NCBI GenBank assembly: GCA_009746045.1
Contig: RPFO01000231.1
Location: 1,872,840 to 1,936,839 of the forward strand
DNA length: 64,000 nucleotides
Origin: Mesostigma viride
Taxonomy: Eukaryota; Streptophyta; Mesostigmatophyceae; Mesostigmatales; Mesostigmataceae
Direction: 5' to 3'
Position 1 is the first letter of the stretch; each line of letters opens with the position of its first letter. A program made the translations under genes and the position numbers. The notes under the pieces were generated by a model, which saw only the letters and a program-made list of their open reading frames with translations, was not told the DNA's origin and did not search any database. Below, piece by piece: positions 9,346 to 33,187 of the stretch.

Positions 9346-12300
9346 ATGGAGACACTGAGGGCGTCCGCCCCCGGAGACGTGGATGGCAGCCCCATGCGGT
9401 TGCCGAGCCAGCAAGCAAAAATGCCTGTCATGCGCCTTCCATTCTCTCCCCTGCACAATGTGACCGACAGCCCGCCTTCCGGCGCAAAGAGCAAGTCGAA
9501 GACTCCCGCTGCCAGTTCCTCTGTACGCAATTCTGTCGACTTCAATGACGAGAACAGACTGCCCGTGCTTGTACAGGACCCCATTTCTCCAAAGGCCGCG
9601 AAGAGAACCAACAGCGGCATCCGCAAGTCCAGCAACACCTTGTTGCTGCAACAGAGTGTCAAGGTGAGTTCGCAATTCTGATGTGCCATTGCTGAGCAAA
9701 CTGCTGACTCATCGCTGAGCTGCACGCATATATCTCGTAGATCGCATTAATTTCCGCATTTGCGAAGCCACCCAAAGCACCTTGCGCCTTTCCACCTTGT
9801 TGAGAAGGATCGCGAACTTCCGCTTCATCACGCGTGAATGCGTACATTACTTTGCCTGCCTTCCATCGCGTGTCGGTTCGTGCATGCATCTTTTGCCTGC
9901 CTTCCAGAACTCCTTGTCAAACCTGGTAGCATCCGTGGACGGAGATAGCGGCGGCATGACCACTCTCAACGGCCTGGGCAAAGTCCTCTCCCATCGCCTC
10001 GTCACCTCCAAGGAAGGTATGTGGACGCTAACGCGCGTCCCCAACCGTGTACTCATTACAATTATATTGTCATGGTGAACCATTCCGCGGTCGCGGTGCT
10101 TTTTTCCGAATCCTGCACGGGGCATATTCCCCTTTGAGTGCGTTCGCCGTCCTCCATAACATTTTCAGCATATCATTTACAGCCGATATTAACTAATATC
10201 CCAGTACGGCAGGCTGTGCATCCCCAAGCTACAGCATTTCCCTTCATGGCCATCTTGGGTCGAAATATACCGGACTTTAAAATATCACTGGCAGTATCAC
10301 TGGCATTTGCAGGTAGCACTCAAACTACGTGCATTCTTGTTCACACTCGTGGCCTTGCGTGTCGTTTTATGAGCCAGATTTTAACTTGCCATGGACAATT
10401 AAACACTTGCACTACTTGATGACATATCCCCCCATGGGAGATAACGAGCAGTTTGACTTGATTCCTGGCTTAATGCTCTTTCCAGCTACCCCCCTGTACC
10501 TGGCCCATCTCTCCCTTCGCACATTCCTGCGAGCCCAACTGCTGGTACATTCTTTCTCTCTGCCGTGTTTCTGACCCATACCATCTCTGTCTCGCTCTTC
10601 AACTTTACTCTCAAAACTGACCTCGTCTACCTGGCCTATCACCCCCGTTTCTTGGCCAAGCCTACTTGTTGTAGGCCCCTTTACTAAGACCCTCTTCTAT
10701 GTCCATTTTGATATGCCCCTTATTCTTTCTCGTTGCCAACCGTCCCTTACCCACTTGCCCCCCCCCACCGCCCGTTCCCACGTGCTCCCCCCCTGTCCTT
10801 GCCCCACTTGTCCCCCTCTCCCCCACTCCCGCTTGCCCCTCTGAACCCCCAGCGCAACTGCTGGTGCAGCGGCTCGAGTGCGCCACCAGCCGGCTGAATG
10901 GCGAGGTGGTCGAGCTGCGCAAGAAGGAAGAGATGAGCGCGGCCGAGCTGCAGAGCCTGGGTTCGGCCACTAGCGGTGATGCGGACGTGGACCAGTTGGC
11001 GTCGCTGTCGGCGCAGGTGGAGGCGTACACGCGCGACATCGCCAGCAAGGACGCGCAGGTGGGTAACAGGGGTAAAGAAGGAAGAAAGAGCCTGTTTAGG
11101 AAGTAGAGAGGGGAGAAAGAGCCTGTTTAGGAGTTATAGAGGGTAGAGAGAGCCTGTTTAGGAAGAAGAGAGGGGGGGATCATGCATTGCTGGGGACAGT
11201 GCGATCAAGGACGCGCCGGTGGGCAGGAAGGGGTGCGTGGGATGGCAGATGGGGGTGTTTGTTGTTTTTTAGGGATTGGTACACCTGCAAGGGGCTTCAG
11301 GCTTACTGGGGATATTGCGAGCCGGACGCGCAGGTGGGTAAGTGGCACGTGGACGGGGAGGTAAGCCTAGTTGCTTATCCATAGGGAGGGACAGGTATAT
11401 CCATCGGTCACTAGCAAGGTCTCGCAGGTGAGAAGTGGGGGGAATGGGAAGAGCCTTTTCATCCCATAGGGGGCCCTCATACATGGCTGGTGACATTCCG
11501 AGCAAAGGACACCTTAGGGATGACAGGGATGACAGGGGGGAAGGGATACCCGAGTCATCCCCTGAACCACACGTGTGGAGCGGTTGCCTCGCGAATCGCT
11601 ACCATGGAACCCACTGGCCACTTAAGCTGCTGGGTGGTTGCCTTGTGAAGCTCTAGCATGGAACTCACAGGTCACTATACTGGTCGCTATCACTGTTGGG
11701 TGGTTGGCTTGTGAAGCTCTAGCATGGAACTCACAGGTCACTATACTGGTCACTATCACTGCTGGGTGGTTGCCTTGTGAAGCTCTAGCAGGCTCTGCTG
11801 CTGGCTAGTTTGTGTTGTGGGGGATACCATCCTGAAGGTTGCTCTCAAAGCAGCAGTCTTTTTGCCTGCAGCGCATCTCGTATACAACTATACCTGCGCT
11901 TGTATCTCAACATGTGGGATGCGAGAAACTTGTACTCGCATCCTCATGTGAGTGCATGGCAAGTCGCATATTCCAACAGGCAGGTCCCACCAGTATCCTC
12001 TCCCAAATCCCCTTTCCCCCACCCGCGCTCATCCAAGACTTAAATGCCTTTGATGGGTCACCCCCCCTCTCCGTCCCGTCCCACTCCCTCTCTCTCCCCT
12101 CCCGCCTCGACTCCCCCCCCCACCCACACCCACACCTTCAGATGGCGGCAATGCAGGCACAGATGCGTCGCCTGCAGGACCTTGTCTCCTTCATGGAGGT
12201 GGAGGTGGTCGCGCTGCAGGCGGCGTCTGACGGCCTGCGCCAAGAGAAGAGCGCGCACGAGGCGGCCGTGGGGCGTGCGGCAGAACTAGAGGAAGACCTG

Positions 12301-14098
12301 GAGCGCGTCACGGGTTTCCTGACCAAGGCGGAGCAGAAGCTGGCGTGCTCCGAGAAGGTACCTTTTGAATGGGTGGATGGGAGTAGTCTCCAATAAATTC
12401 AAGCGCATGCTTCCATTAAGTGGTCGTTGAGGGTTATGTGTGACAGGGACTGTCAAATGTCTCTATGGTAGCTGTCAAGCGGGCACAGACGCGTGCCTGC
12501 AGGCAGCAGGTGATGGTGGGAAGAACTGTGCTCATAGTATGTTTTAATGGGATACGATTATAACGGGATAGGACCGGTGAAGACGGGATAGGCCCCGTGG
12601 AGCACTCAACGCCACCGGTAGGTATGCTGAGGAGACAACTAGGGAGACTACTAGAACGAGGACAGGGCCGCACCTTTCTGTCTCCTCTGCAGCAGCAAAG
12701 GTCACTGGCCTGACCAGAACGGCTGCCTCCGCAAGCAGTGCGTGTGTTCACGGGGCCTAGAGCGAAACTAGCCCACAACGCGACGGAGGAGGGTGCAGGC
12801 GTGTGCCTACGCTTGTTGAGATTTCCGGCCAGCGCTGACAGAGATGCTCGGGACATAAAATGCAAGCGGTGGGGCATGTGTTTCGATTCGATGCATTGAT
12901 GACAGCTGGGGACCTTCTAGCCCTATTGGGTGGGAGATTCTAGCCCTATTGGGTGCCATCCTAGGGTGCTGGCTTCGGCCATCCTCCTGACTCACACCCA
13001 TCTTAATTTATCGTTGTTCTTAGATCCCCTCCGACTACCCCCCCCACACCCCCGCCCCCACCCCACACATACATTTCCCTTTCTGCTTCTTTTCTTCCCA
13101 AGACAACCTCCCTTCTTTCTGCTCCCTCGTTTTTCCGTGTCACCATCCCCCGCTTGCCGTCTTCCCTGCCCTCCGTTTCTATAAATAGCGATTCTGATCC
13201 GTGCCACCTTCCCATCCCATCGCCCCCCTTCCCTTTCGCCGCTCTCCCCATCCCGCCCCATCCCGCCTCCCCCCGCCCGCCAGCATCGCGAGGGCAGCGA
13301 GCGCGTCGTCTCTCTCTGCCTCCAAAAGATCCAGCGGCTGCGCGCCGAGCTCTCCTCCACCCAGGCCGCCGCCGCGACCGCGTCGGAGAAGATGCTCGTC
13401 TACGAGCTCATGGCCGAGCAGCTGCGCAAGGAAGGGGAGGCCAAAGGGGCCGAGCTGGCCGAGGAGATGCGCCACATGGCGGCTCAGCGCGAGCTGCTCA
13501 TGGCCGAGAACGAAATGCTCCGGAGGGAGCTGAGGGAGGCGGCCGCGCGCGCATCGGTGCAGCGGTCGGTGGAGTTTGGGACCCTGGAGACGCAACTCGC
13601 GAATCTCAGGTGCGCCCTGTTCGGGGAGGGTGCTATTGTTTAGCTAGCCAGGTACAGGGTAGGCATACAAGGGAAAGTATGATTGTTCAACGGCAAAGTT
13701 TGTTCGAGCGGTTTCTTTTGCTGTCGAACAATTTGTTATGCTCTCTGGAATCCAGGTTGTGTCGCCTTGCATAGCTGTTTGGATAGTCCCCTACGCCCGC
13801 TGAAAGGCCGCATGAAAAGCTCTCTGCATTGTTAGTCCCACAGCTGCTGCTGGGTGGACCAAACAGACATGACTCAGCGATGGCATCCTAGAAAGCCAGA
13901 GGTCCAAAAGACAATACCCCTTGTCTACCCCAACTCACCAAGTGCAAGGACCGTTAGAAAAGTAGCAGTAGCAGTAGCAGTAGCAGTAGCAGTAGCAGTA
14001 GCAGTAGCAGTAGCAGTAGCAGTAGCAGTAGCAGTAGCAGTAGCAGTAGCAGTAGCAGTAGCAGTAGCAGTAGCAGCAGCAGCAGCAGTAGCAGTAGC

Positions 14099-14130
<32 letters not shown>

Positions 14131-14312
14131 TAGCAGTAGCAGTAGCAGTAGCAGTAGCAGTAGCAGTAGCAGTAGCAGTAGCAGTAGCAGTAGCAGCAGT
14201 AGCAGTAGCAGTAGCAGTAGCAGTAGCAGTAGCAGTAGCAGTAGCAGTAGCAGTAGCAGTAGCAGTAGCAGTAGCAGTAGCAGTAGTAGTAAGAGTAGTA
14301 AGAGTATTAGTA

Positions 14313-14399
<87 letters not shown>

Positions 14400-15589
14400 G
14401 CAGCAGCAGCAGCACTAGTGCTAGCAGAGTAGTGGTGGTAGTAGTAGTAGTTGTTGTTGTACGTTACCATGCACGTGTTCATGCTCCCCAGCAGGCGGCA
14501 TGGCTTACCCGATCCCCACCATCACACGCACGCAACCCGCTCCCATCACACGCTTGCGGCGCTAACCACGACTCCCGACTCCCTTATCATTGCCAACAAA
14601 CGTCTGTTCCTCCTTCCTTCCCCCCCCCCTGCAGGGACCAGCTCTCCCACCGCACCCAGGCGGTGGACAGCCTGCGCTCGGAGCTGACCGCCAAGAGCGG
14701 CCAGCTGCGCGACGCGCAGGGCAAGGTGGAGGCCGCCAAGGCCGAGGTGGCACGCGCAGCCGCAGAGGACCTGGCGCAGGTGCAGGAGGCCATGGGAGCA
14801 CGCGTGGAGCGGCTGGAGGATGAGGCGCTGGCGCTGTCCAAGCAGGCGGCCGACAAGGAGGCGGCGCTGCAGGTGAGCGAGGGGGGGTAAACGTGCTGGT
14901 GTATGTCGGGTTTTAAATAACCCTCTAGTTGATTCCCACGTTCGTCCTGCTTGACAGGATTCACCTCCCTGACCTCTCCCCTGCTAGTCAAGTATTAACA
15001 ATAAATCATTCATCACAAATGCCAGCAAGGGAAATTTTCTCGGCAAGAAGGTGGGCTGTTGCCTAATGCTTCTTTTGTTCAACCTCCCTCCGTGGATAAC
15101 CCCTTCATCTTTGTCTCTCATCCCTTTCCATGCCACCTATCAGTTTACCGTCCCCTCGCCTTTTCTCCACCTTCTTGGCAGCTGTGGCCCGCCCAGTCCA
15201 TTTTCCTCTCTTTCTTGAAGCCTTGTTTCCATTCCATTCCCTGCCACTCCTTCACCCTCCCTTCTACCCCTCCCTTGCCCTTCATCAATCGACCCACGCA
15301 CCAGGCTGCGCTGAGCCGTTTGGAAGCCCTCCAGCTCGACATGGAGCAGTGGGCCGCCACGCAGGAAGAACAAGGGGCCGAGTTGGCCCGCCTGCGTGCC
15401 GAGGCCGCGTTGGCCGCTGAGTCTCGCAGCGATCTGCTTGCGCGGCTCGACGAGCGCGAAGGGGAGCTGCTCGAGGCCCGCTCGCTGGCGCTGGCCACCG
15501 ACAGAGAGCTGCGTGCGCTGGAAGTCAGCATCGCGGAGATGCAGGTGTGCACTTGTCTGTATGTGGGTGGGGGTGTGGGGGGTGGGGGT

Positions 15590-15646
<57 letters not shown>

Positions 15647-18600
15647 GTATGCAGAAGCGCTGGAAGTCAGCATTGCGGTGTGAGATGCAGGTGTGTACTT
15701 GTGTGCGGTGGAAGTGTGTGTTTGCATGTGTGGTGTAAATGTGGGTGTGGGTCCATATGCACGGGCACGGACTCATCATGCTTCTTATGTGCTGATCGAT
15801 AGCTTCGCAATCCCTGTTTATGGTTTGAGTTTGGGTTTTAGGGCCTAGCTTACAAAATGCTTTTGAGAATACTTAGTCCCGAAATGTATCTCCAGTAGCT
15901 TCCTTCCTCGTCTGGCCGATCCGTACTGCGTCGCGGCTGCACGGCAACATCCAGATGAGCATGAATGATGCAAATGCAATACTGCTATTTTGTTACTGCA
16001 TTCCCAAGTTACCTCCCTGTGTTCCCCTCCGCACATTCTAAGCACACCATGCTGGAGGCACCGTATGCTCTGCTGTGTTTGTCCTGGAACTCCTGTACGC
16101 TTGTTCTCCAAGCTCAAACCCACTCATTGCCCTCCCCTCTGGCACCCATAACCCACTCCGCCCACCGCAGAACGAGATCCAGAAGCACCACGACAAGGCT
16201 GCCGCGGCCGAGGAGGCCGTTGAGCAGCTGCGATCCGCGCTGGCCCGTAAGGAGGCGGCGGTGGCGCGGATGCAAGAAGATATTGCGGGCAAGGACCGCG
16301 TGGCGAAGGCCACAGAGGAGGCGATGAGCAAGAGCAAGGCCGCGCAGGTGAGCCTTGGCTACCGTTTAAACGCGTGGTATGGCCACAGGGGTGGGGACAT
16401 CTGGTTATGAGACCACGGAGGAGGAGATATGCAACAGCAAGGCGGCGCAGGTGAGAGGCCACAGCATCGCAGGGCAGGCACCCTCCGTTCTTACAAGATC
16501 AATACATACAACACCTAGTCACGCATATAATCGAGATGTTGGGGGCAAGCAGACGAGCGAGCGCAAGGTCAGAATGCGGCATAGCACACCGTGTAAGGAA
16601 GCCAATGCCTATTCAATAGAGCAGGACACAAATGCCTGATAGAATCACATGGTGGCGCAGGCCCCAGGTACGCGCCCACGTATTCGTCACCGTCTGCAAG
16701 TTTTCCCATTCCAGTCTCGAAACAATACTCACCGTCACTGGCCTTTCCACCCATGATGAATTCGCTGCTGACTTTCCTCCCCTGGTCCCCCCCCAACACC
16801 CCACCACCAACACCAAACCCACCACTACCACCACGTGTGCAGGAAAGCTCCCAACTCGCCGCCGACACTCTCCAGGGCAAGGTTGTGGAGATGGAGAGCA
16901 TGCTGGCATCTGTCAAGAGCAAGGCCAACGCAAAGGTGGGGCACCACAACGCTTGCTCCCTTGTGGGCGCCGCCCGTTTGTTTTTCGATGGGTGCCTTTC
17001 CTTCATTATTCGCGAGGCAGATGCACGGTGATTATGACGTATACCCCTCGCTTTCCTTTCAAATTTGACCCGCATCAGCTATGTAGAGTTCAAGGGCCTG
17101 GGTCCTGGGGTATTGCGTATCGTGTATCGGTTCTGGATTTAACATTTCACCTTTTCCCCTGCATGGGTCTTCCCCTGTTCACATGTGCCGTCTGCCAGGT
17201 TCGGCGCGCCCAGGACGCGCAGGCCGAGCTGCTCAAGCAGGTGATCACCCTGGGCATGCAGCTGGAGGAGAAGAACGCGCTGTTGGATGCGGCCATCGAC
17301 CAGGCCACCCAGGCGCACATGGCCGCTGGCGCGGGCCGGCTCAAGGCAGAGCTGGCGGGGGACAAGGCTGCCAAAGAGCAGGAGGAGCTCAAGGCGGAGA
17401 TCCAGCGGCTCACCGTCATGCAGTCCAGCATGCAGGTACGACTCAAGGTTGTGCCTACGGTTTTGGTAGATATTAGTCTAGTACTCCAAGGGCGGAGGTC
17501 CAGCAGCGTAGGGCTCGCCGTCATGCAGCCCAGCATGAAGGGGTACGATGGGTAGTTCTATACCACAACTACTTTGTGGCTGCATGGTTCCTGGGCTAGC
17601 TCCCTCCAAGTGGCGAGGTACCCTTTGCCACCGCCATGCAGACATGAATGCAGTTATATATGGAAGCTCATCAGGATCGCGTATCTTGGTTTTCCATAGG
17701 CCAGCCCAACATGTAGGACAAAGTCCTCCCTAATGCCTGCATGCACTTTTTTTTCGTCCTTATGGCTCTGAACTTGTTTCAAGGTCTTTTGGTCCAAATG
17801 GCATAAGGACCCTGGTTTATTTATCTCGCTCGCTCCTGCCTTGCGCTCACCTTGCCACGGCTGGCCCAAGGAAAGAACTCCTTCCTCGTCGTTCTGGTCC
17901 CCCCAGGGGCGCATGACACTATCTCGGGCTGGACACTATGCCGTGCTCACGTGCCTTGCTCAAATGTCGTACCGTCGCATGGCTCTGTGCGAAATGTCCT
18001 GACCCTCCCCCCACATGACGCTGCAAACGTCCCTTTCTTACTCTAACGTCTTTTGTTTGCCTTCTTGGGATCCTCCATCTCTCTCCTTCCCCCCCAGATG
18101 GCTCTGGACACCTCCAAGCGCCTGCTGACCACCACCGAGGAGGAAGCCGCGGCGGTCGAGAATGAGCTGCATGGGCGCATCGCCGAGCTGCAGGCTGAGT
18201 TAGCCTCCCAGAGACTTGCTGCGCAATCAGAGATGGCCACCCACAAGGCCGCCGCCGCGGCCGACAGGGAGCAGGCGGGTCAGCGGGAGGCGGTGCTGCT
18301 GGGTCGCACGGCCTCGCTCCAAGAGCGAGTGGTGGAGTTGGAGAACGAGCTGTGCAACCTGGGGCAGGAGTACGAGGCTGAGCAGGAATACGCGGGCAGC
18401 GTGGAGAGGGTGAGTGGTTTTTATCGATCAAGAGGAGGATAGTATGGGTCCATACGAGAATGAGGGTAAGGGGAAGTGTGAGGGCAATGAGTACGAGAAA
18501 GAGCAGGAGTATGAGGGCAGCGTGGAGAGGGTACGTCTTGGGACTGGTTTTATGTTGGTGATGAGGAGGACGACGAGGGTGAGGATGAGAGTACATGCGA

Positions 18601-21600
18601 GGGTAAGGATGATGAGGCAGAACAGCCGAGCATGAGTATGTGGGTAGGGTGGATGGAATGCGTTGCGGGTGGACTGGGCTTTGTGAGGACGACCCTTTGT
18701 CAAAGTTTAAAAAATCTTTGGGAGCGATTGGACTCACTAGTACAGGATAAGGGTGAGGATGAGCATGAATGGAAGCATAAGGTGATGCTTATGAGGAGGG
18801 GAAGGAGGAAGAGGAAAGGTTAGAGGATGGTGCTCGTGTTAATGGGAGGGAGAGTAAACCCCCATTCTGGCCCCACTACATCCGCACCCATATCGTGCAA
18901 GTTCTTGCAGATTGCACCAAGGATCCATACGGGATAGCGCCCCCTCCCCCCCCAGGTTTCCTGCGGGTCATACTTGGCACCTGTCCTCTGCTCACCGTGG
19001 CTCCCTCGCTCCCACTTAAGCCCCTTTTCAATTCATCACCCCACGGCTAACCCTTCTCCCATTTCATTCATCCTTCTCCCCCCCTTTCCCCTGTCCTCCT
19101 TTTCCCCTGTCCCCCGTCCCCACCCCATTCCCCCGTCTCTTCCTGCTTCCACCTTTCCCTCCCCTTTTCTGGTCTTCCACTTGATGCGGCCCCCTCTCCC
19201 CTTGCCCCCTTGCCCCCTTGCCCCCTTGCCCCCTTGCCCCCTTGCCCCCTTGCCCCCTTGCCCCCTTGCCCCCTTGCCCCCTTGCCCCCTTGCCCCCTTG
19301 CCCCCTTGCCCCCTTGCCCCCTTGCCCCCTTGCCCCCTTGCCCCCTTGCCCCCTTGCCCCCTTGCCCCCTTGCCCCATTTCCCCATTTCCCCATTTCCCC
19401 ATTTCCCCATTTCCCCATTTCCCCATTTCCCCCAGGAGCTAAGCGCCAGCGAGGCGGAGCGTTCTCGACTCGAGCTCTCCCTCAAGGACCGCAGCCGAGA
19501 GGCCTCGGAGGCGCGCGCCCACGCCGACATGCTGCGCGCCGACCTGTGCTCCCTCACCGCCCGCCAGCAGGACCTTGTCTCCCAGCTGTCCGCCTCCCAG
19601 CGCCGCGAAGAGTCCCTGGCGTCCGAGCTGGCGTCGCTGCAAGTGCGGGTCAGTGTGACGGAGGACAGAGCGGACAGCGCCGAGCTGGAGGTGGCAGCGC
19701 TCAAGACGGAGGTGGCGGACCTGGAGAAGCGTGTGTTCGAGGGGTTGCTGCTGAGGGGCGAGTTGGAGAAGAAGGCCAAGGAGCTGGCTGCGGCCGAGCG
19801 GGTCGTCCAGGTGCTGCGCGCCGGTACGTCTCGTGACATGTGGTAGCTGCTCTTTAGCCTTTGGGCCTGTGGGTGTTGGGCGTTCTGTCTGTACCAGGAT
19901 TGCACATCGCCGGTACGTCTGCCATAACGCGTGATGGAGGCACGTGGGGACGTGTGATGGCAGTAAGGATTGGTGGGGGGCTAGGGCGGGTGGGTCCTGC
20001 TGTGAGTACATCTGAATAAATCATCCCTGCCCGCATGATGCCTTTGATGAGTCGCTTCTCGCTTGGTGACAACTTGCAGTCATGAGATCACTTGAATTAT
20101 CCTCTGTAGTCTTCTTTTTGTTCCTTCTTTCTTGAAGGGGGGAGATCCAACGATGTATATCTGCCTTAGTTGTGGCTGTTCTTCATACACCTCTCCCGTC
20201 CCGAGCACCCTCATTTAACCTGCATTCCACCTTTCAACATTCCCACACAATGGATTTTTTTGGGAGCCTTTCTAGAGCCTCGTTTCTGCCTTCCAACCTT
20301 AAACCTCCTGTCTACCTTCTTCCCACATCCCTCCCCCCCCCCCCTTCCCCCCCCCCCCCATGCAGGCACTGCCGAGCAGGAGTCCAAGTGCGCCCAGCTC
20401 GAGCACACACTGGCCTCCGTCACCCGCGCCAAGGAAGCCAGCGACGCCAAGCTGGCGTCGCTTGACAGCCAGCTGCGCGAGGCGGGCGCGCTGCTGGACG
20501 TGAAGGAGGCGCGCACGACCGCGCTGCGCCACCTGCTGCAGGAGCGCGAGGGCCTGCGCGTGCGCGCCGAGACGGACGCCAGGGCGGCGGGGCTCCAGGT
20601 GCAAGGGCTGCTGCAGGCGCTCGTGGAGGCCGGCGCACGCCACTCGGAGGAGCTCATGGTGCGTTAATCCTGGCATGGTTGCATTGTGCCAAAGCTGGTA
20701 AGTGTAGTGTTTTGAGGAGGAGGTGGGGGAGGGATGGAAAGGGGAGCTACGCCGGATTGATTACCACTCAAAGGAGCCCATGGTGCGTGCGTGCTGGCAT
20801 ATCTGGCTGTGTTGGCATATCTGGCACGTGTGTTGGGTGGTGGTCTTCTTTATAATAGCGTGCATCACTAGGGGAAGTAAGGGGAGGTTCAACGTCTCCC
20901 ACGATGTCGAGGCGTTTGGATAGCATAGATTTACCCAGTGTCACTTATCTGGACAAGAGCACCTATCAATAACCGAGGATGAAACTGCGAAATGACCTAT
21001 GCCGACCGGGGTTCTCACTACCACCGTTTGCTTAGCAGCCTCTCCTCCAATCCCTCTCATTCTCTTTTGTTGGCTTACCCTGCATATTTTACTCCTGCAT
21101 ATCCTTACCCACCAACCCCCAGGCCGGCGTGGCCAAGCTGGAGCAGGCGCAGGCCGTGGCGGATGCCATGCGCGAGGACCTTGAGGACCGCGACGCCGAG
21201 CTTGCGTCCGTACGTGCTGAGCTGTGTGAGCTGAATGGTGCGCTGGAGGCCAAGGAGGCGTTCCTTGCACGGTACCGCGACACGGCGCGCCGCGTAGTGG
21301 ACGCTGTGAGGCAGCAGTGTGCGGGCGAGCTGGCCGACAAGCAGGCGGAGCTGGAGCGCGTGGGGGAGGTGAGTACGGGCAATAGCTGTCTGACATATGT
21401 GTCTGACATATGAGCGCTTAGATGACATCATGCTGCTAGTGTATTATGCACAGTATCCGACAAGCTGGGCTGACAAACAGGCAGAGCGGAAGGCGCGGGG
21501 GGAAGGTGGAGTGTAAGCGTACTGGTGTTCATAGACCTACTACTATGCACCTCCAACGACCATGTAACTCTGTATAGTAAAATATTTTCAGGTTTTTAGG

Positions 21601-24600
21601 CGAGTCTGCTAGGACAGGGCAGGGTCATGCTAGAAGAAGAGATCCATATTTTGCAGGTCTGTTGCCCCTCGATGAATCATATTGCTCCTGATATTGCAAC
21701 ACTCCTACGCACCCCAATACCACCACCTAGATCAATCACCTCCGCCACCCCTGAAATTCCACCTCCACCCCATTCCCCACCTCCGTTCTTACCCCTACTT
21801 CTACCTCCAACTCTACCCCCACCCCACATCAGGTGCTGGAGGCCACCCGATTGGAGATGGAGGACCAGGCCAACAGTGCGAGCGCGCGCGAACGCATACT
21901 GGCTGACACCGTCGAGGGCCTGCGTGCGGCCACCACTGACGCGGAGGCAGCGGCAGCCGGGTGGCAGCAGCAAGCAGTGGCGCTCAAGGAGCTGTTGGAT
22001 GCGACTGAGGAGACGTCGGCCGTGAAGGTGCGATGATTACTGCTTTGCAATAGAATTCCAACCACCAACAGGAGTGGTCGCCTTGGCTGAAGGTAAAAGT
22101 CCTTACCCAATCGTTAATGGTCCTAGTGATACGGGTACGGTATTTTATTTTGCAGGGATGCCCAAGGAAGCTGATAAAAGCGTCTTTGCACACTCGTGCA
22201 TCTGGCCTGCCCCTGTCCCGCCCGTTCGCCCGTTTACCCCATTTACCTCCCTCTTTATTTACCTGTATCTACCTCCCTCCGCCCGTCTATCATTCACCCC
22301 CATCCCAAGTGCATATTCCCTGGTGCACTTCGCCCATGCCCCATCCCATGGATGGGCCCTCCCTCCACCCCCCACCAAATCCCCTCCTTTGCCCTTTGCC
22401 AGGGCAGCTTTGCTCATTCCGGCTCCACCTGTCCTCACGTCCATCCCTACCCCCCACACTTTGTCATTCCCTTTCCTTTCACGTATTCCCTTCTTCGCCA
22501 GCGCGCCGACCTGGAGTCGGAGCTGCAAGCCGCCCGCGCCGCCATGTCCCACGCGCAGCTGTACGCACGCCGCACACGTGAGGAGATGAACGAGATCACT
22601 TTGGAGCTGTCCCAACTACAGGCCACCGCTGCGCTGACCGCTGCGGCCGCCGCCGAGCAGTCCTCCCGCCTTGAGGCTGCCGCTGCCACCCTCGCCCAGA
22701 GAGATGCCGCACTCGCCGAGCGCGAGGCGCAGATCCTGGACCGTGACAGGCTGATCGCGTCCGCGCGGGAACAGCTGGCGTCCGCGGAGGCTGACCTCGC
22801 CTCCCTCTCATGCCAGCTCAGCGCGCGTGAGGAGGAATCCGCGCGTGCCCATGCCGCCGTGGCCGAGCTGCACGAGAGGATCGCGTCCCTGGAAGCAGAG
22901 GCGGCGCGGCACGCAGAGACTGCTGAGTGCATCGAGGGGCTTGTCATGGGGCGCGACGCCATGATGGCGCTGTACGAGGACGCGAGCGCGAGGGCCGAGG
23001 CGCTGCAAGGGGAGGCGGAGAGGTTGAGGGCAGAGCTGAGGGAGAGGGAGGATGGGTGGAGGGTCAAGGTGGAGGACAAGGAGGAGGCGCTGGGCAAGAC
23101 GGAGGAGTTCTTGGGCCGGTGAGTGGCGGGGACGTGGTTGATGAAGAGGGCGGTCGGCTGAGGTTGGCAGTTGAATCTTATCGCAGTAGATAATAGAAAA
23201 CGGTATGACTTAAGCAACTGGTAGGGGTTTTCTGGGTTGTGCCCTTTGAGCCATTTCTTTTAGTAATTCTCCTTCCCCCACAGACAAGCACTGCGCACTA
23301 TGGGGCTATCCTGTGCCTCTCTCTCTCGTCACCCCTGCCTCCGTTTCGACACTGGCTCCCTGCCTCCCCTCCAGTCTCCTCAACCCGTTCTCCCTGCCTC
23401 TTCGCTGATGGTCTTTATCATCTTATTATTTATATAGTCTTTATCATCTTCCTGTTGCGACCGGGGAGCACGGGGTAATCCTCGCACCTCATCCTCCCAT
23501 TTGATCTGTTTAGGGTTTATCTGATCTCTAAACGCCATGTCTCGCCCCTCCCTGTCATCCCTTCTCATACCCACATCCCATTCCGCCACTGCCACCAGCT
23601 ACCAAGCGGTGACGGCGTCGGTGATCGCTGCCATTCGCGCGCAAGACGCCCGCGAGCTGGCGTCCGCCACGCTCGAGATCTCCTCCCTGCGCTCCTCCCT
23701 CGCGCGCGCAGAGGCGGAGGCCTCCTCCTCCTCCCTCGAGGTGTCCAGCCTCCGGTCGGCGATGGCCACGCTGGAGGCCTCCTTGGCCGAGTCCCACGCC
23801 GCGCTGCAACTGAGCGAGGCCCAGGGGGTTGCGATTTCCCAGGACCGAGCGGGTCTCGCCCAGCGCGTCGGTGCGCTCGCCGTCGCGGTCGAGGAGCGAC
23901 AGGCTCTGCTGGAGGGTGCTCGGGCTGAGTCAGCCCGCCTCGAGGCCCAGCTTGCGGAGTTGGTCGCCAGTGGGGAGGCCAGGGCGGAGGAGCTCGAGGC
24001 GACACAAAGGGCGTTGGAGGACGCAAGGGAATGCGTGGCTCACGGGGACGAGGAGGTCCGGTCACTGCGCACGCAGGTGTTGGAGATGGAGACCGCGTTC
24101 ACCGTCCTGTTGGCGGAGAGGGGCGCGGAGGAGGCTGGGCGGAAGGACGCGGAGGCCGCGCTGACAGATGCCAGGAGTACTTGTCTGGCGCTGGCGGGGA
24201 GGCTGGAAGACGCGCTGGCAACCGTGACGTCCCTGCGAGGTGAGCTCGCCGAGGCCAGGGCAGAGACGTCCAGGTGTCGCGACACCATGGGCCGGGAGAT
24301 CGAGTCGCTCCGTGGGGTGGTGGCGGCCAAGGAGGAGTTCCTGAGGGCGTTCCGTGAGACGAGCGCCCGCGTGGTCGCGGCCGTGAGGGCGCAAGACGCA
24401 GAGCAACTGGCGGCCGTCACCGCGGAGGCCGCCAGGTGGCAGGAGAGGATGAGGGAGACGACCAGAAAGGTGGTGCTTGCGGTGCGGGAGCAGGACGCGA
24501 GGGAGTTGGCGGCTGCGGTGACGGCAGTCAGAGACGAGGGCGCGAGGGAGCTTGCGCGGGTGAAAGCAGAAGGGGTGGCATCCCTGGACAAGGTGAAGGC

Positions 24601-27600
24601 GGAGGCGGAGCTGTGCCAGGAGAAGGTGAAGGAGACAGCGAGGGGTGTGGTGGCGGCGGTACGGGCGCAAGATGCCAGGGAGCTCGCGGTTGTCAAGGAG
24701 GAAGCGGCGCGCGCGCAGGAGAGGATGCGGGAGGTCTCCCGGAGGGTGGTTGAAGCTGTGAGGGCGCAGGATGCCAAAGAACTGGCAAACGTCAACAAAG
24801 AGCTGTCGGACGCCAGGGCAACCCTGGAGGGTCTCCGAGAGGAACTGGAGGCGGCAGCGGAGGCCGCGGTGCTGGCTTCTGCAGAGCGCGAGGGAATGAA
24901 GGCGGAGGTGGGTGCGATTCAGGCCCAGCTGGACAGCGCCTTGGCCGAGAATGACGTCATCCATGCCCGGCTGCAGGCGGTCAGGGTGGACCGAGAGAGG
25001 GTGGTCTCCCAGCTGTCATCGGTGATGGCCATGAACGAGCAGATGGAGTCTGCGATGGCGATCCTGGGACAGATGCTAGAGGAGTCCCGTGATGCATTGG
25101 CCCGTGAGGAAGCCCGTTCGGCGGAGCTGTCCACCCAGGTTGTCGGTCTGGAGTTCCGGGTGGGCCACCTGGAGACGGGGCGTGTCGAGCTTCTGGCGAA
25201 CGTCAACGAGCTCCAGAGGGGGATCGCCGAGAGGGACGCCATGTCGGATGCCATGAGGGGGGAGCTGGGCGTGGCGGCGGCCGAGCGGGCAGCCTTAGCG
25301 GCGCAGCTCGCGGTCGCCCGTGACGAGCTGGCGCTGTCAACGCGTGCGGCGGAGGTCGCGCACCAGGAGGTGGCGGCGCTGCGGCGCCAGATCGACGCCG
25401 ACAGGGCGTTCTTGGACAAGTACAAGGCGACGGCGACGGGAGTCATTGACGCGATCAAGGCACGGGCGGCGGGCGAGATTGCAGAGAGAGACGCGGTGCT
25501 CGAGGCCGTGCGCGCTGAGCTGGCATCCGTACGCGCCGCGGACGAGCGTGCGAGAGCCGGGGCCGAATCGGAGGTCGCGGAGCTCAGGGCGCGGAGGGAG
25601 GAGGCCGCGGCGCACGTCCTCGCGCTGCGCCGGGCGCTGGAGGAGCAAATGTCGGAAGCTGAGGCGCTTCGGATGGACCTCGCGGAAGCCAGCATCAAGG
25701 ACGGGGACAAGACGCTCACGATCGCAGTGCTGAGGGCCACGCTGGAGGAGAGGGAGGCCGCGGCGGAGGAGTTAAGCGAGGAGCTCGCGGGGGTAGAGGG
25801 CGCGTTGGAGGCGACGGAGAGGGCGGCCGAGGAGGGACGGGCGGCGGCGGCGGTGGCGGCGCGCAGGGCGGCCGACCGCGAGGCGGAGTTGATGGAGAGG
25901 TTGAGGGAGGCGGAGGGCGCGGCGGCGCTGGGGAGGGAGGAGGCGCGGGCGCTGCGCGAGGGGATGGATGCGATGGCCGGTGAGTGGCGGGGCGGTCGCC
26001 TTTTTCGCGTACTTGTGACCCGCTCATGCCTACTACCTTTACCAGGCCACGCGTTTGTCATACGGTCACAAAACATACAATCATGACAAATGCTTGTGTT
26101 GCCATACAGCATGTAGGTCTTACTACCTTACAGGTACTCCCATCGAACCATGCTATTCTGTGTGCACAACCTGGTGCAGCCACACAAACTTGTGTCATGG
26201 AGCCTCTCTTCTAAGCCCCTCCTCATGACCCTTCGTCCACTTCAAAAGCCATCTTCCAAGGCTCGACTGGGATGCAGTGACCGAAAGTCTTACCCCTCCT
26301 CGCTTCTCCCCTCCTCATCCTTGCTTCGTTCTCTTCTGGACTCCCCCCCCCCCTTCTGACCTGACTCTCCCCCGTCCACCCCGTCCACCCCCGCAGTGGT
26401 GGCCGCACGACGCAAGGATGTGACCCAGCGCCTTCTCTCCGCGCTGCGCGCGCAGTGCGCCACCGAGGTCGCCGCAGTGACGTCGCGCGCGGCGCAAGAC
26501 CAGGAGGCCGCCGCCCTCGCCCACGCGGCTGCCCTGTCAGCCATGGCCTCGGACCACGCGACCGCGCTGTCTTCCCTCGCTTCGGACCACGCGAGCGCCC
26601 TATCCGACCTGACCAATGACCACAAGGCGGCGATGTCTGCGCTGACCGCCGAGATGTCGGCAAAGGAGGCCGCGTCACGGTCCGCGCTGGAAGACCTGTG
26701 CTCCCAGCTGTGCGACGTTCTGGCCGTCGTCACGTCCGAGCGGGCGAGGGGCGACCGCCTCCAGGCAGAGGTGACGTGGCTCGCCGAGGAGGGGGAGAAG
26801 GCGGCAGCACGCGAGCGGGAGCTAAGGGAGCGCGCGCGCATGCGGGAGAGCACGATCGCCACGCTGGAGCTGAAGGTCGGCTTCTTGTCGGCGGCGATGC
26901 GGACAAACCGAGACACGCTCGAGCGCAAGGTGGGGGCGGGTGCATGGCTCGCCTTGTGGCAGTGCAATTAATTAAATATATAAAACAAATACTATTGTGG
27001 CTGTGCACTTGTGGTGATGATACTTGTTACATCGTCGTGCCTAGTACTGTTTCTGTCGATGGCGATGTATGGTGGGACAAGAGCGATGCCGACCAACCTC
27101 GGCACACAGAGCGCAAAGAGAGTTGGCTCTGCCTGCCAGTATGGTTCCTCATCGTCCTCCTTGGTCCTTCTAACGCTTGACCCTCTTACCTGGGGACGCT
27201 GTTGTGACCTCCTTGTGCACCCATTCGACTGACAATGACTAAAATATATATGCAGTTCAAGTTATTTACCTGTGAGATGTTTACATCATCCATCTTGGGT
27301 TTTCTCAACCTGATTGTATTGATGAGTGACTTTTTCCTATGTCCATCGAGCTGCTAAAAGCGTTGCACTAGATCTTAACCTTGCTTGTTTCTTGTTGGTT
27401 TGTTCCTTGACTTGTTTCTCTCATCGTTCATCCCCAGTCTATCGAGTCGTTCAAGGCGGTGCGCGAGCTGGCGGACGCGCAGGCGGAGCTCGCGGCGGCG
27501 CGCTCTCGTCTGGACCAGGCCGAGAGGCAGCGTGCCGAGGCGGAGGCGGCGCTGAGGGAGGAGCGGAGGGAAGCCGAGGCCGCGCGCGAGAGCGATCGCT

Positions 27601-30600
27601 TGCACGCGGAGCGGGTTGCAAGGGAGATGCAAGCGCTGAGGGAGGAGCTGGCAGCCAAGGCGGAGCGGTGCGCGCAGCTGGAGGGGAACGTGACCGAGCT
27701 GCGGGTGAGTGGGTCGGCAGCGCAGTGCCGCGCCTAAGACGGCCCTGAGGGCGAGTGTACTTTCAAGTCTGGTGGCAGAGCCCTTATCCAAGCGAGATAT
27801 TGTTTCACGGCTGCCCGTTCGCCTTCAACTTTTTTTTTGCGCCCACATATGGAGCTCATCTTGGCATTCTCTTCAATTTGGTTGTCCTCTTTCTGTCGCT
27901 GCTTCCCACCCTTCCCTCTGCTTGATGCGTCAGGTCGATGTCAATTTTCATCTCTGCTGGCATCTGCACTTGTTCCCTATTCTCGCACCTTGTTTCATGC
28001 GGCTGCCCACCTTTCTCTTTCTTCTTTACGTAACCATATTCATATTTTCCCCCATCATCCTGCCCCTGGGGGTTGTGGGTGAACCCTGGTTATGCCCCAA
28101 CAAACCCTCAGGCTCCGGGAAAGCCCTTTAAATTCTCTTAAACGGGCGCCTCTAAATGCGTTCCAAGCTTGTCTGTGGACTCTGGACCACCATTGGGGCA
28201 GCCTTACTGCATCCGCTATGCTTTTGCTGTGTCGAAGCTTTATTGTACCCACAGTGTTGCGCCCCGGCACCATGAGGCAGCGAGAGTCCTCTGTGGCCTG
28301 CCCACTTGAAGCAGTGAGAGAAGCTAGGGCGCCCTCCCTCCTCGTTGTGTATAGGGTCGAAGGTACCTTTATTGGTACCCACTTTTAATCTTGCCTTATT
28401 TTTTCCTCGATCCCCCCCCACGTTTCCTTTTATGCCGTTTTCCCCACCCGCATAGACGAAGTTCCAATTCTGCTGCCATATTTCTCATTTTGCTGTCCTC
28501 TTTTGTGTCGCTGTGCCCCCCCCTTTCCTCGTACCCATGCTTCTTTATGCTGATGCCTCCCGCCTCCCCTCTCATTCTCATCCTTGTCCTGCATGATCCT
28601 GCATCCCTTTGTCCTGCCTGTTTCTCTTAATCCCTTCAGACGGAGCTCCAGGTGGGCGCGGCCAAGAGCGAGGAGCTTGCGCGCAAGCTGGTGGAGCGTG
28701 AGGCAGAGCTGGCCGAGGCGGAGACCGCCTGGGCCGCGGTGGAGGAGTGCAAGTCCCTCAAAGCGCTGCTCGAGAAGGCACGCGCCGACTCGGCCGCGGC
28801 CACCGAGAGGCTGCTGCAGGCGGAGCAGCACCTGCAGTACGTGGCTGTGTGGTTGTGATGGTTACCAGTACATGGCGGCCCTTATAGTGAAGATCGTGAA
28901 GTTGCTGCAGGTGGAGCGGCACCTGCAGTACGTGGCTGTGTGGTTGTGATGGTTACTAGCACATGGCGGCCATTATAGTGAACATCGTCAAGCTGCTGCA
29001 GGCGGAGCGACACCTGCAGTGCGTGCATTCTTGAGGTTGTGACAGGGCATCTACTCAGTTCAGGCAGGGCTGTGGCCGGCAGTGCCAGCAGGAGTAAGGG
29101 GCCCAAAAGACCAGTTCTGTGGCTAAGAGTAGGTACAGAGGCTCATTTCGTGTGTTTCTTTGTAGAATGAGCCGCAGCATTCCACATTCTGCAATCTAGT
29201 TGATGCTTTGGCTGTGACATTTATTATTATCGTTATATTTAAACTATTGTTATTATTACGGGACACTTTTTCATCGCTTTCCCACCTCTTCCCTGGTGGC
29301 CCACCCCGCCCACCATCGACACCACCATTTCTACCCTATTACTGCAGCCAACAATAACGATAGTAACTCAGTTTTCCACCCTCTCACTACAACCTCTAAT
29401 CACTGCAGCCCTAAACTGTACCCACCACCCACTTACCACCCGCAGGCTGCGCAACGCCGAGATTGAGGCAGGCCTGGAGCGCGAGGCGACGCTCACTGCG
29501 GTGCTCGAGGCCAAGGACACCGAGGTGGGTGGGTGGGGCCACCCACCGGCGCGCGCCGATGAAGATTGCTTGAAGGATGAGGGGGATGATGTAAGCAAGG
29601 GGAGGGTGGGAGGCAGGCAGCACGTGTGCATGGATGTGTGAGGCAGGAAACGTTTACGTTTAAGGGTTTGATGAACATTCCAGGGGTGGCGGTTTAATAG
29701 ACCAACCGGCTACCTCCATCTGGTGCCCCTGTCATGTTAATAGAGATAAGGAGATCAGCAAAGTTACTAAGTGTCCCTCTGAGCTGTGCGGTGCCTCTTT
29801 CCTTACATGGAAGGGCCTGCGTGGCATTCGTAAATTCCTATTGTGTGACCAAGTATTTATGGCTTTCTGCAAGCTATCTGGCGTATTTCTCCGATGGGTG
29901 TATTTTAACCGCCCAATGACCACCACCCTTTCAATCACTCACTTATGCATTCATTTCCTTCATGCACTGCCGTGCCTCCATCTCATAATAAAAGTTTTTA
30001 TTTGAGACCAGCTCGCAGGCCCAGTGCGCCCAAAAAGACTTTCATTCGCTACTTTAAATATTGTGTACAGTCCATTCACGCCTTAAGTCGGGTTTGCTTA
30101 AGTTGTGTTCACGCCTTAAGTTGGGTCGAATAAGATTTTGGCATTCTTAGTTTAAAGTAGTTCACAGTATTTTTTAGTATCTTTAGTTCAAATTAGTAGA
30201 ATTTAGTAGAGTCATTCACGCCTTAAGTTGGGTTGACCCCTAAAAAATCTCGAACCCAACTTAAGGCGTGAATGACTGTACTCTCTACTTTGGATCTGTT
30301 CATGCTCTTGACTGCATTGGACCATGGACCGTTCGCACCCCCTGTTAGCTCGCAACTCCTCCCTGTCAAGTGTGAGGTCCAGCTCACGATGCTCCCTTTG
30401 CCTTTATTCCCTTATTTGGTTCTATTGCGACATTTATATCCCTAACCCATTTCCCTATCAGGTCCAGCGCGCGCGCTATGACGTGCAGCGCCTCTCAGGC
30501 CAGTTCAAAGTAAAAGAGACCATCAGCGCCGAGTCAATGACTGTGGCCGCCACCCTGCGCTCCGACCTGGAGCGCAAGGAGGCCACCCTGGCCAGCTATA

Positions 30601-31384
30601 AACAGGAGATGGCCTCCCTTCGCAAGGTCACCGAGGAGCTGCGAAGGAGGCTGGAGAGTGAGAAGGTGGTTGCCAGCACCCAGTGGAAGCCGGCCACCAA
30701 GGAGTTTGGCAAGAGCGGCATCAGCGGCGCCAAGGAGTGCAACAAAATCCCCAAATGCGTCATGGGGCTGCCCCTCATGAGTGCTGTCATCACCGATGGC
30801 GCACCGCTCCTGTCCGCGGTACGCAAAAGTCATCGTGCTTGCTTTGGGATTTTGTCGCGAAGCTTGCGGACCATGGTTTCATCGGGTTAGATTTACTACT
30901 AGCAGTATTTCACTGGGTCACTTTTAGACCACCTTGTGGGGTTGTGGTTACCTCTAGAGGGACGATCGTTTTGTTGGTGCTTTACTTGGTGTCCACCATG
31001 CTTATATAGTGTACCTGTAGGGCTCATCTAATTTTACGATCCACTGGTCAGGTGGAACTTTGGCTGGGTAAATTATTCGGCTTTTGGAAATAGATTACAT
31101 GCCTGTTGGCTCAAGGTTGTTATAGGTCGTCTTACATCCCTCTTACCTAATTCTCTACCAAGATCCGCAGCGCTTGCACTACTGACCCTGAATGTGCACT
31201 CATTTTCAGTTTCTCCTTACGCTTCTGCGCTTTTGTCTTTTCTTGGAATGCCTCGACCCTGTGATCTTCTTGGCACAAACAGACGGAGACGACCCCCACT
31301 AGGCCACAAGTGCCACCTGCGAAGCAGCGACCGAACGAAGGCCAGGGCCTGGGTTTCCTGGGGCGCCTGAGGCAGCTGCTATGA
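9346..31384 (+). CDS. Giant coiled-coil protein, 23 exons, 2708 residues
   Basis: Exons: 9346-9663, 9908-10016, 10853-11058, 12142-12357, 13284-13609, 14635-14872, 15305-15544, 16171-16347, 16843-16935, 17199-17435, 18098-18409, 19436-19823, 20366-20658, 21123-21368, 21833-22027, 22502-23118, 23599-25979, 26397-26929, 27438-27704, 28640-28836, 29446-29524, 30462-30818, 31283-31384. Every junction is GT-AG and phase-compatible; the sum is 8127 bases ending in TGA. The first ~106 residues are a basic, Ser/Pro-rich head with SP sites. From about residue 145 to 2560 the protein is almost unbroken Ala/Glu/Leu/Arg heptads, so a long rod is expected. There is no transmembrane segment or catalytic motif. 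The tail is short and basic (LGFLGRLRQLL). A structural role (cytoskeleton, basal body, Golgi or nuclear scaffold) is inference; no named family was recognised. A small exon could be missed in the longest introns. Confidence 0.85.
11059..12141 (+). repeat. Intron 3 with a ladder of decayed exon-end/donor copies
   Basis: The exon 3 end reads GCCAGCAAGGACGCGCAG/GTGGGT with GT at 11059. Diverged copies of that junction recur with GT at 11219 (ATCAAGGACGCGCCG/GTGGGC), 11334 (GCCGGACGCGCAG/GTGGGT) and 11428 (AGCAAGGTCTCGCAG/GTGAGA). Spacing falls from 160 to 94 bases. Farther on, a CTCTAGCATGGAACTCACAGG unit is repeated three times at 11640-11790. Confidence 0.75.
13963..14402. repeat. (TAGCAG)n / (TAG)n / (TTG)n array in intron 5
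   Basis: About 440 bases of GTAGCA hexamers interrupted by AGC triplets. The array turns into pure TAG triplets near 14284, TTG near 14366 and CAG near 14400, with a short echo at 14434-14460. It is purely intronic. The poly-Ala/Val/Leu frames that cross it are not genes. Confidence 0.95.
15545..15705 (+). repeat. Poly-G tract and duplicated exon 7 end immediately after the donor
   Basis: Right after the exon 7 donor (GT at 15545) come a TGGGTGGGGG ramp and an almost pure G run to 15644. A copy of the exon 7 end follows (GCGCTGGAAGTCAGCATTGC...GAGATGCAG/GTGTG, GT at about 15691). The unit between the two donors was therefore duplicated and the G run expanded inside it. G runs of this kind are prone to sequencing and assembly length error. 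Confidence 0.85.
16348..16575 (+). repeat. Exon 8 end/donor copies in intron 8
   Basis: The exon 8 end GCAAGAGCAAGGCCGCGCAG/GTGAGC is echoed at about 16420-16455 as ATGCAACAGCAAGGCGGCGCAG-like text followed by GTGAGA, with GT near 16451. It recurs more weakly at 16553-16570 (AGCGAGCGCAAG/GTCAG). Confidence 0.7.
18410..18650 (+). repeat. Exon 11 end/donor copies in intron 11
   Basis: The exon 11 end GAATACGCGGGCAGCGTGGAGAGG/GTGAGT is repeated at 18494-18535 as GAGTATGAGGGCAGCGTGGAGAGG-like text followed by GTACGT. A weaker copy is at about 18612-18648 (GCATGAGTATGTGGGTAGGGTGG). All are in the same orientation as the gene. Confidence 0.75.
19204..19430. repeat. (CCCCCTTG)n then (CCCCATTT)n array forming the acceptor tract of exon 12
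   Basis: About 21 copies of the octamer CCCCCTTG, then seven of CCCCATTT, running directly into CCCCCAG/GAG, the exon 12 acceptor. The array therefore serves as an extreme polypyrimidine tract. Gly/Lys/Ala/Arg-repeat frames on the minus strand are artefacts. Confidence 0.95.
23599..25979 (+). CDS. Exon 17 of the coiled-coil gene, with repeated V-x-A-V-R-A-Q-D-A-x-E-L-A module
   Basis: This 2381-base exon encodes about 794 residues of continuous coiled coil. A 26-residue module recurs. It begins with FL/RM/KV, then R-x-T/S, then VVxAVRAQDAxELA. Copies lie near 23600, 24340, 24445, 24610, 24720 and 25412; related copies sit in exon 14 (~21265) and at the start of exon 18 (~26397). The last four residues of the module (ELA plus a variable residue) continue the heptad phase. 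The exon is unusually long for this gene, whose other exons are 79-617 bases. Its donor is GTGAGT at 25980. Confidence 0.85.
28174..28385 (+). repeat. Dispersed repeat copy in intron 19
   Basis: The first half (GGGGCAGCC...CTATGCTTTTGCT...CCCACAG) matches the minus-strand LINE tail at 2575-2660. The second half (CTGTGGCCTGCCCACTT...GAGAAGCTAGGGCGCCCTCC...) matches the reverse complement of 32455-32600. It is probably a short retroelement or truncated LINE tail. No promoter boxes were recognised. Confidence 0.6.
28837..29035 (+). repeat. Three-step ladder of exon 20 end/donor
   Basis: The exon 20 end GCAGGCGGAGCAGCACCTGCA is followed by donor GTACGTGGC (GT at 28837). It is repeated at about 28908-28955 (GTGGAGCGGCACCTGCA/GTACGTGGC) and at 28998-29025 (GGCGGAGCGACACCTGCA/GTGCGTGCA). 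The intronic TGTGTGGTTGTGATGGTTAC tail is copied too. Donor spacing is about 90 bases. Phase shows the first GTACGT is the authentic donor. Confidence 0.85.
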
Positions 31385-32824: not shown

Positions 32825-33187
32825 GACGACGACTTGACCCTGGCACAGCAACAACGGCGACGGGAGCTATGGCCGACCTACCTCCAGCTCCGGCAGACCA
32901 AGGCGGGCCAGCCGGTGTACTGGAAGGGGGCGGCCATCTACGTCGGCCACAAGCCCTGGCACGCGACCCCCTCGACCACCGCGGCCCCAGCAACTCCAGC
33001 CCCAGCCTAGGGGAATACAGCAGCAGTAGTGTAGAATAGTTAGACAGTGGCCTTGTACATGCCCGCCTACTACAGGCACTATACCAGCTGAGGCCTAGCC
33101 TTTTTAGTCATGTACATGTGTGCCTATGATGGGCCACCCTCCAGATGATGCCTAGTTTTATTTAATTATGCAGTGCCCATGCAGGGA
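32825..33187 (+). mobile_element. Fragment of ORF1-type LINE (ORF1 3' end plus downstream spacer)
   Basis: From GGACGACGACTTGACCC onward this is nearly identical to the end of the ORF1 at 36135-36322 and its following spacer. It encodes DDDLTLAQQQRRRELWPTYL and YWKGAAIYVGHKPW, with a stop at 33008-33010. At the GCAGGGA near 33187 the sequence departs from the 3' UTR seen in the other copies and enters the reverse-transcriptase region. That point is a recombination or insertion junction, or the true ORF1-ORF2 boundary. Confidence 0.75.

What the first reader, a model, noticed from the sequence alone, without database searches (positions are those of the whole stretch)
11035..29035. Introns of the coiled-coil gene begin with decayed tandem copies of the preceding exon end plus its donor
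Seen directly at exons 3 (GT at 11059, then 11219, 11334, 11428), 7 (15545, ~15691), 8 (16348, ~16451), 10 (17436, copy near 17510-17545), 11 (18410, ~18530), 12 (19824, ~19912), 13 (20659, ~20783), 14 (21369, copy near 21470-21510) and 20 (28837, ~28927, ~29020). That is about 9 of 22 donors, always downstream and in gene orientation, at ~85-160-base steps, with divergence rising with distance. This looks like repeated tandem duplication anchored across the exon/intron border, with the inner copies released from coding constraint. It could be a route of intron growth or donor redundancy. AGGT-anchored exon duplication has been proposed for intron gain; a ladder like this is something I do not recognise as described.
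Basis: partly seen in the sequence, partly recalled or inferred. Interest (0 to 1): 0.88.

Follow-up and report, generated by a model that had tools for sequence, protein, structure and literature searches.

The report
Decayed exon-end copies inside introns
In a green alga, about three in ten of the splice donors examined are followed, inside the intron, by decaying tandem copies of the end of the exon, because short stretches of DNA straddling the exon edge were duplicated and only the first copy appears to be used; this lengthens introns and leaves a readable fossil record of how they grow.

Summary
The gene has 23 exons (9346-31384). For 9 of its 22 introns the exon end plus donor matches its own intron better than any of 462 mismatched pairs. 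The organism is Mesostigma viride. The pattern is genome-wide: over 136 introns, 40 donors and 14 acceptors carry copies above the 99.5th percentile of mismatched pairs (McNemar p 7e-5); reversed exon ends match in 2.

What it is: short tandem duplication (spacing about 100 bp) is common throughout these introns, with the same spacing inside introns as at donors. A duplication straddling a donor is tolerated because the first donor stays in use. The exon copy is frozen by selection and the rest decays. Much of the 'anchoring' is a visibility effect: the donor excess is 3.0-fold, or 1.5-fold [0.99-2.39] after correcting for the frozen exon copy. Copied donors are not preferentially kept, so donor redundancy is not supported. 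The AGGT intron-gain model is met in 0 of 136 introns. Acceptor-straddling copies are rarer, and the exon share of copies is unexpectedly short; both are open. New variant of a known kind.

The parts
9346..31384 (+). Coiled-coil protein gene, 23 exons, 22 GT-AG introns, 2708 aa (annotated in M. viride as Mv16023-RA)
11059..11440 (+). Ladder in intron 3: used donor 11059, copied donors 11219, 11334, 11428 with 20-38 nt of exon-3 end before each; a weaker match without donor at 11575-11608
   Evidence: identity 0.76-0.78 (weak match 0.71)
15545..15705 (+). Ladder in intron 7: used donor 15545, copied donor 15691
   Evidence: identity 0.86
16348..16455 (+). Ladder in intron 8: used donor 16348, copied donor 16451; weaker matches without donor at 16371-16397, 16534-16586 and 16652-16674
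   Evidence: identity 0.85 (weak matches 0.71-0.79)
17436..17656 (+). Ladder in intron 10: used donor 17436, copies ending at 17543 and 17654
   Evidence: identity 0.77 and 0.79
18410..18653 (+). Ladder in intron 11: used donor 18410, copied donor 18531, decayed copies at 18562-18616 and 18625-18653
   Evidence: identity 0.84, 0.67, 0.76
19824..19920 (+). Intron 12: used donor 19824, short copy with donor 19913 (weak: 13.5 points)
20659..20797 (+). Ladder in intron 13: used donor 20659, copied donor 20783
   Evidence: identity 0.79
21369..21512 (+). Ladder in intron 14: used donor 21369, copied donor 21506
   Evidence: identity 0.76
26930..27116 (+).
   Evidence: identity 0.77
28810..29025 (+). 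Youngest ladder of the gene, intron 20: 91-bp unit, 2.4 copies, 90% identical including intron sequence; used donor 28837, copied donors 28928 and 29019

Best explanation
M. viride introns accumulate short tandem duplications (spacing mostly about 50-200 bp, median about 100). When the duplicated unit straddles a donor, the gene carries two or more identical exon-end + donor units in a row. The first (5'-most) donor stays in use, so the mRNA does not change and the intron becomes one unit longer. The exon copy is then held by purifying selection while the intronic copies drift, so the similarity should stay visible about twice as long as for duplications wholly inside the intron. Repeats of the event give a ladder whose far copies tend to be older. 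Shown: the copies, their frequency in 136 introns, the shared spacing with interior duplications, use of the first donor in gene models, and no preferential keeping of copied donors. Inferred: the mutation process itself (slippage or repair), the factor of two in visibility, and selection against acceptor-straddling duplications as the cause of the donor/acceptor asymmetry.
For: Own introns beat mismatched introns in three sets: 22 introns of this gene, 56 introns of kinesin, dynein and CCT genes (20 of 56 above the 99th percentile, 0.6 expected) and 58 further introns from my gene finder (14 of 58 above the 99.5th percentile). Young arrays include the intron part of the unit: 83 bp at 96% (four copies of the exon part identical) and 70 bp at 97% in kinesin introns, 91 bp at 90% here. 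Donor and interior spacing agree (medians 97 and 104, KS p 0.58). Interior windows with a tandem partner: 77 of 682, against 14 of 2405 random pairs. In arrays young enough for decay to matter little (period 40 or more, 85% or more identical), 5 straddle donors, 6 lie inside introns, 0 straddle acceptors.
Against: The exon share of copies is shorter than uniform placement predicts (median 31.5 against 56 nt, p 0.0007; maximum 69; 32 of 35 copies used), so placement is not random with respect to the border. The factor of 2 for the frozen copy is a model, and the corrected donor excess (1.49, 0.99-2.39) does not exclude a hotspot. Some introns with acceptor ladders keep the AG in upstream copies (9 of 14) yet use the last acceptor, which a strict 'first site wins' rule does not predict. 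The trend of divergence with distance is weak. No RNA data were available.
Confidence: 0.8

Rival explanations
1. A true mutational hotspot at donors: the G-rich start of the intron (for example through R-loops or replication stalling during transcription) provokes duplications with breakpoints about 30 nt before and 65 nt after the donor.
For: GC skew is +0.40 in the first 25 nt of introns and fades to zero by +200 (78 introns); copies share a narrow geometry, exon share median 31.5, maximum 69; corrected donor excess 1.49 [0.99-2.39]; of four repeat-finder arrays with period 60 or more in 50 introns, three straddle a donor.
Against: Intron-only windows beside the donor exceed the interior by only 1.38 [0.74-2.41] and 1.44 [0.83-2.46], the corrected exon-end value is 1.11 [0.70-1.80]; spacing is the same as in the interior; over 136 introns young arrays are 5 at donors and 6 inside introns.
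Confidence: 0.3
2. Selection keeps copied donors as back-ups or decoys (donor redundancy, U1 recruitment).
For: The copies aligned through the donor in the window still carry GT.
Against: That count favours alignments that run through the donor. With exon-only queries GT is kept in 26 of 47 copies (31 of 47 with 2 nt slack) against about 0.73 by drift; the strict count is a deficit, p 0.013, the slack one is not, p 0.32. Annotated proteins use the first donor.
Confidence: 0.05
3. Intron gain by tandem duplication of an AGGT-bearing exon segment.
For: Tandem duplication at exon borders is shown.
Against: The model needs the upstream exon's end at the far end of the intron and the next exon's head at its start: 0 of 136 and 0 of 136 above the 99.5th percentile.
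Confidence: 0.02
4. Assembly artefact or chance similarity from low-complexity coiled-coil codons.
For: The gene is coiled-coil and repetitive; its exon interiors also show self-similarity (10 of 61 windows).
Against: Mismatched exon-intron pairs of the same gene are the control; kinesin, dynein and CCT genes show the same; many copies are only about 65-90% identical, which assembly duplication would not give; reverse complement gives 2 of 136.
Confidence: 0.02

Closest known systems
[quoted passage not shown] reviewed in PMC3443670, passages seen)
   Same: Local tandem duplication within a gene creates extra splice-site-like sequence.
   Different: Here no new intron is seen; an existing intron lengthens, the copy lies about 100 nt after the donor, and the intron's far end does not carry the exon end.
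Potato RdRp boundary-crossing duplication (Ma et al. 2016, PMC4974935, abstract and outline seen)
   Same: The duplicated segment crosses an exon-intron boundary.
   Different: There it crosses the border of an intron and the following exon and a new intron resulted; here donors are hit most often and the result is a longer intron. The contrast fits a 'first site wins' rule at both ends (inference).
Minisatellites / intronic tandem repeats
   Same: Head-to-tail units; donor-straddling arrays with periods 38-91 bp are found by Tandem Repeats Finder.
   Different: One unit is partly coding and frozen, and the arrays lie across the donor.
Tandem alternative donors (recalled, no call)
   Same: Several donors in a row after one exon.
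   Different: The spacing is far larger and the extra donors are not preferentially kept.

Membership tests
AGGT tandem-duplication intron gain | Upstream exon end repeated at the 3' end of the intron | tested here: not met
   0 of 136 introns above the 99.5th percentile of mismatched pairs
AGGT tandem-duplication intron gain | Downstream exon head repeated at the 5' end of the intron | tested here: not met
   0 of 136
Boundary-crossing tandem duplication | Duplicated unit contains both exon and intron sequence, head to tail | tested here: met
   91-bp unit in intron 20 and 70- and 83-bp units in kinesin introns include donor and intron sequence
Boundary-crossing duplication creating a new intron (potato RdRp type) | A new intron is spliced out within the duplicated region | tested here: not met
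   In the window gene the annotated protein equals the one-intron-per-border model apart from the exon-21 insert, next to an intron with no ladder; not tested with RNA
Functional tandem donors | Extra donors maintained by selection | tested here: not met
   GT kept 26 of 47 (31 of 47 with slack) against about 0.73 expected
Functional tandem donors | Extra donors used in transcripts | not testable with these tools
   No RNA-seq at hand; only gene models
Introner-like or other mobile element | Same sequence shared by unrelated introns | tested here: not met
   Mismatched exon-intron pairs average 9.1 while own pairs average 14.2; whole introns were not compared with each other

The most novel reading that the evidence does not exclude
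Donor borders are a genuine, geometrically fixed duplication hotspot tied to transcription or splicing, so that introns in this lineage grow from their 5' end by a conveyor belt: each event inserts a fresh copy beside the exon and pushes older ones inward, with survivors filtered by the need to carry about 45 nt or more of intron head so that the first donor keeps winning.
Probability: 0.25. Interest if true: 0.82.

Novelty: new variant of a known kind. Interest (0 to 1): 0.62.

Why it matters
How introns get long is often put down to transposons; the M. viride genome paper attributes its long introns (mean 1142 bp) to repetitive elements making up 30.1% of intron space (PMC6947507, passages seen). 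Here exon ends act as frozen reference copies, so the age and size of intron-lengthening duplications can be read directly in one genome. The donor-over-acceptor asymmetry is a natural experiment on which of two identical splice sites a cell uses, and the short exon share may map how much intron context a donor needs.

Tried and rejected
Rejected: AGGT intron gain; whole-unit duplication of exon end + intron + next exon head (next exon's head in the intron head 2 of 136, 0.7 expected); donor redundancy; shared mobile element. Led nowhere: exact breakpoints and microhomology from young arrays (several of its 11 rows were trivial self-alignments; not used). Multiples of three in the spacing (8 of 41, p 0.07; 2 of 21 gapless) is only a hint. 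One search returned no M. viride CCT-eta record at its cut-off, so it did not check donor choice there. One search merged minus-strand stretches in the wrong orientation; found, corrected. No other eukaryote genome was at hand, so I cannot say whether the pattern is special to this alga.

Rows dropped before counts: family rows were chosen by hand for adjacent profile positions out of the 129, 44 and 51 matches reported: 94 rows typed, then 23 CCT and 29 kinesin rows, partly repeats. The matches were not fetched. Of 70 junctions 60 were resolved, 9 not, 1 lacked sequence; 56 were kept after a score cut and removal of duplicates. Of 333 gene-finder introns 95 passed filters and 58 were new. The gene finder was trained on the introns it was checked on (22 of 22 and 56 of 56 donors), so that check is not independent. 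In one search, 3 of 35 copies did not reach the junction and were left out of the share statistics.

Literature: searches listed no paper that I recognised as describing decayed exon-end ladders at donors; they cover open-licence PubMed Central only, and not every wording was tried. Papers opened: PMC6947507 (passages), PMC3443670 (passages), PMC4974935 (abstract and outline); all others were seen only as listings.
Full report
Gene and organism. The window lies in a 439,911,974-base assembly of 2243 contigs. The gene at 9346-31384 has 23 exons and encodes 2708 aa. The only protein returned for it at E <= 0.001 (7982 candidates scored) is the M. viride protein jgi/Mesvir1/13895, 99% identical. 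The published M. viride assembly is 441,847,188 bp in 2363 scaffolds (PMC6947507), so the organism is Mesostigma viride. The annotated protein is identical to mine once a 22-residue insert after exon 21 is removed; the insert comes from a donor 66 nt downstream.

Test in the gene. Exon end (60 nt) plus donor (10 nt) was aligned to the next 600 nt of its own and of every other intron of the gene. Own pairs average 16.7, others 9.3; 9 of 22 own pairs exceed all 462 others (7 of 22 with the exon end alone). At acceptors it is 0 of 22 in three settings and 2 of 22 in the shortest, with permutation p from 0.01 to 0.10. A sliding scan peaks at the donor: 38% of queries ending 0-24 nt past it score 16 or more, 7% at 50-74 nt; a second rise at 500-700 nt involves few introns and includes a 66-bp minisatellite in intron 3.

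Genome-wide test. Exon junctions were read from neighbouring profile hits of kinesin, dynein and CCT families and resolved by splice signals and frame. Of 56 such introns, 20 exceed the 99th percentile of mismatched pairs at the donor (0.6 expected) and 10 at the acceptor. A gene finder trained on these exons gave 58 further introns: 14 donors and 5 acceptors above the 99.5th percentile. All 136 together: donors 40, acceptors 14, both 6, McNemar p 7e-5. Reverse-complement exon ends: 2. At a threshold of 15 points, 44 of 136 introns hold 77 copies; 21 have two or more and 8 have three or more.

Anatomy. For 41 first copies that could be mapped, the distance from the used donor is 28-729 nt, median 99; exon share median 28 nt (query cut at 70 nt), intron share median 65. 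Young arrays repeat exon end, donor and intron together: an 83-bp unit in a kinesin intron, 70 bp in another, 91 bp in intron 20. In older ladders mostly the exon-derived part is still recognisable, as expected if intron sequence drifts in both copies and exon sequence in one.

Donor against interior. After masking simple repeats, 40-nt windows with a partner within 300 nt are: straddling the donor 41 of 122, exon end 32 of 128, intron head 17 of 109 and 18 of 111, interior 77 of 682, intron tail 5 of 66 and 7 of 81, straddling the acceptor 15 of 108, exon head 10 of 129. Random pairs give 14 of 2405. Donor over interior is 2.98 [2.01-4.84]; dividing by 2 for the frozen exon copy gives 1.49 [0.99-2.39], and 1.11 [0.70-1.80] for the exon end alone. 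The acceptor value after the same correction is 0.58 [0.33-1.04], and 0.32 [0.15-0.61] for the exon head. Spacing of donor and interior pairs is not distinguishable. Young arrays (period 40 or more, 85% or more identical) are 5 across donors, 6 inside introns, 0 across acceptors; a smaller set of 50 introns had shown 3 of 4 arrays of period 60 or more at donors. So the ladders are mainly the visible edge of a process that works throughout introns, with at most a modest donor excess and a deficit at acceptors. Elsewhere in the window the same statistic is 4 of 204 upstream of the gene, 9 of 283 downstream, 1 of 104 in the retroelement and 80 of 301 in the repeat-rich right end.

Which donor works. 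Family alignments show no insertion at 16 of 20 ladder junctions, the other four deviating by 6-12 nt; my resolver favours zero insertion, so this is support rather than proof. The annotated CCT-epsilon protein is identical over 360 aa across a ladder junction, and its alignment to the Klebsormidium protein is gap-free over that stretch, so the exon copy is the original and the intron copies are derived. Copied donors decay as drift predicts or slightly faster (26 of 47 kept, 31 with slack, about 0.73 expected).

Why donors more than acceptors. Inference: if the 5'-most of two identical sites is used at both ends, a donor duplication leaves the mRNA unchanged, but an acceptor duplication puts intron sequence into it. 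The potato case, where a duplication crossing an intron and the next exon gave a new intron (PMC4974935, abstract), fits. Against this, 9 of 78 introns show copies of the next exon's head, with AG kept in 9 of the 14 copies that reach the junction, yet the last acceptor is the one taken. The C-rich tract before acceptors may also hide or prevent duplications.

Open. The exon share is shorter than uniform placement predicts (observed median 31.5, simulated 56 [40-73], p 0.0007; maximum 69 nt, p < 5e-5). Either breakpoints avoid exons or survivors must carry enough intron head for the first donor to win. Divergence rises with distance only weakly (rho -0.30, p 0.009; 20 pairs fall, 10 rise, 3 tie). 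Introns with copies are longer (628 against 516 nt, one-sided p 0.001; 630 against 563 nt, one-sided p 0.018 with length control).

Noticed in passing
window 29525-29591: Exon 21: the annotated protein uses a donor 66 nt further on (GTAAGC), adding 22 in-frame residues; possible alternative donor in an intron with no ladder.
   Followed up: partly
window 44152-48370: Long open frames ending in a tyrosine recombinase-like domain (PF00589); the layout looks like a DIRS-type retroelement (recalled, not tested).
   Followed up: partly
window 33156-33815, 3228-4778, 35342-36322, 39096-40541: A reverse-transcriptase fragment (PF00078) and three open frames that look alike by eye and read like non-LTR element first ORFs; two of the three were scanned, without Pfam match.
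   Followed up: partly
window 1462-2178: Weak Hint-module match below the family cut-off.
   Followed up: no
window 61005-62142, 56140-57625, 52343-52956: Large tandem arrays: ATACG x 228, a 48-bp unit x 31, a 21-bp unit x 29.
   Followed up: no
window 13961-14451, 15565-15644, 19198-19433: Intronic hexamer array, an 80-nt G-rich run and an 8-bp CCCCTTGC array just before an acceptor.
   Followed up: no
L060, L068, L069 (G000:C1690:5744387-5747219): Two neighbouring dynein introns carry both donor and acceptor ladders, the acceptor copies at steps of about 90-140 nt.
   Followed up: partly
G000:C2:6330541-6334132 and C622:17695-21288: The same kinesin exons occur twice with the same scores, probably two haplotype copies; could show ladder polymorphism.
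   Followed up: no
78 introns (22 of the window, 56 from other loci): Strong strand asymmetry: GC skew +0.40 at intron starts, falling to -0.50 before acceptors.
   Followed up: partly
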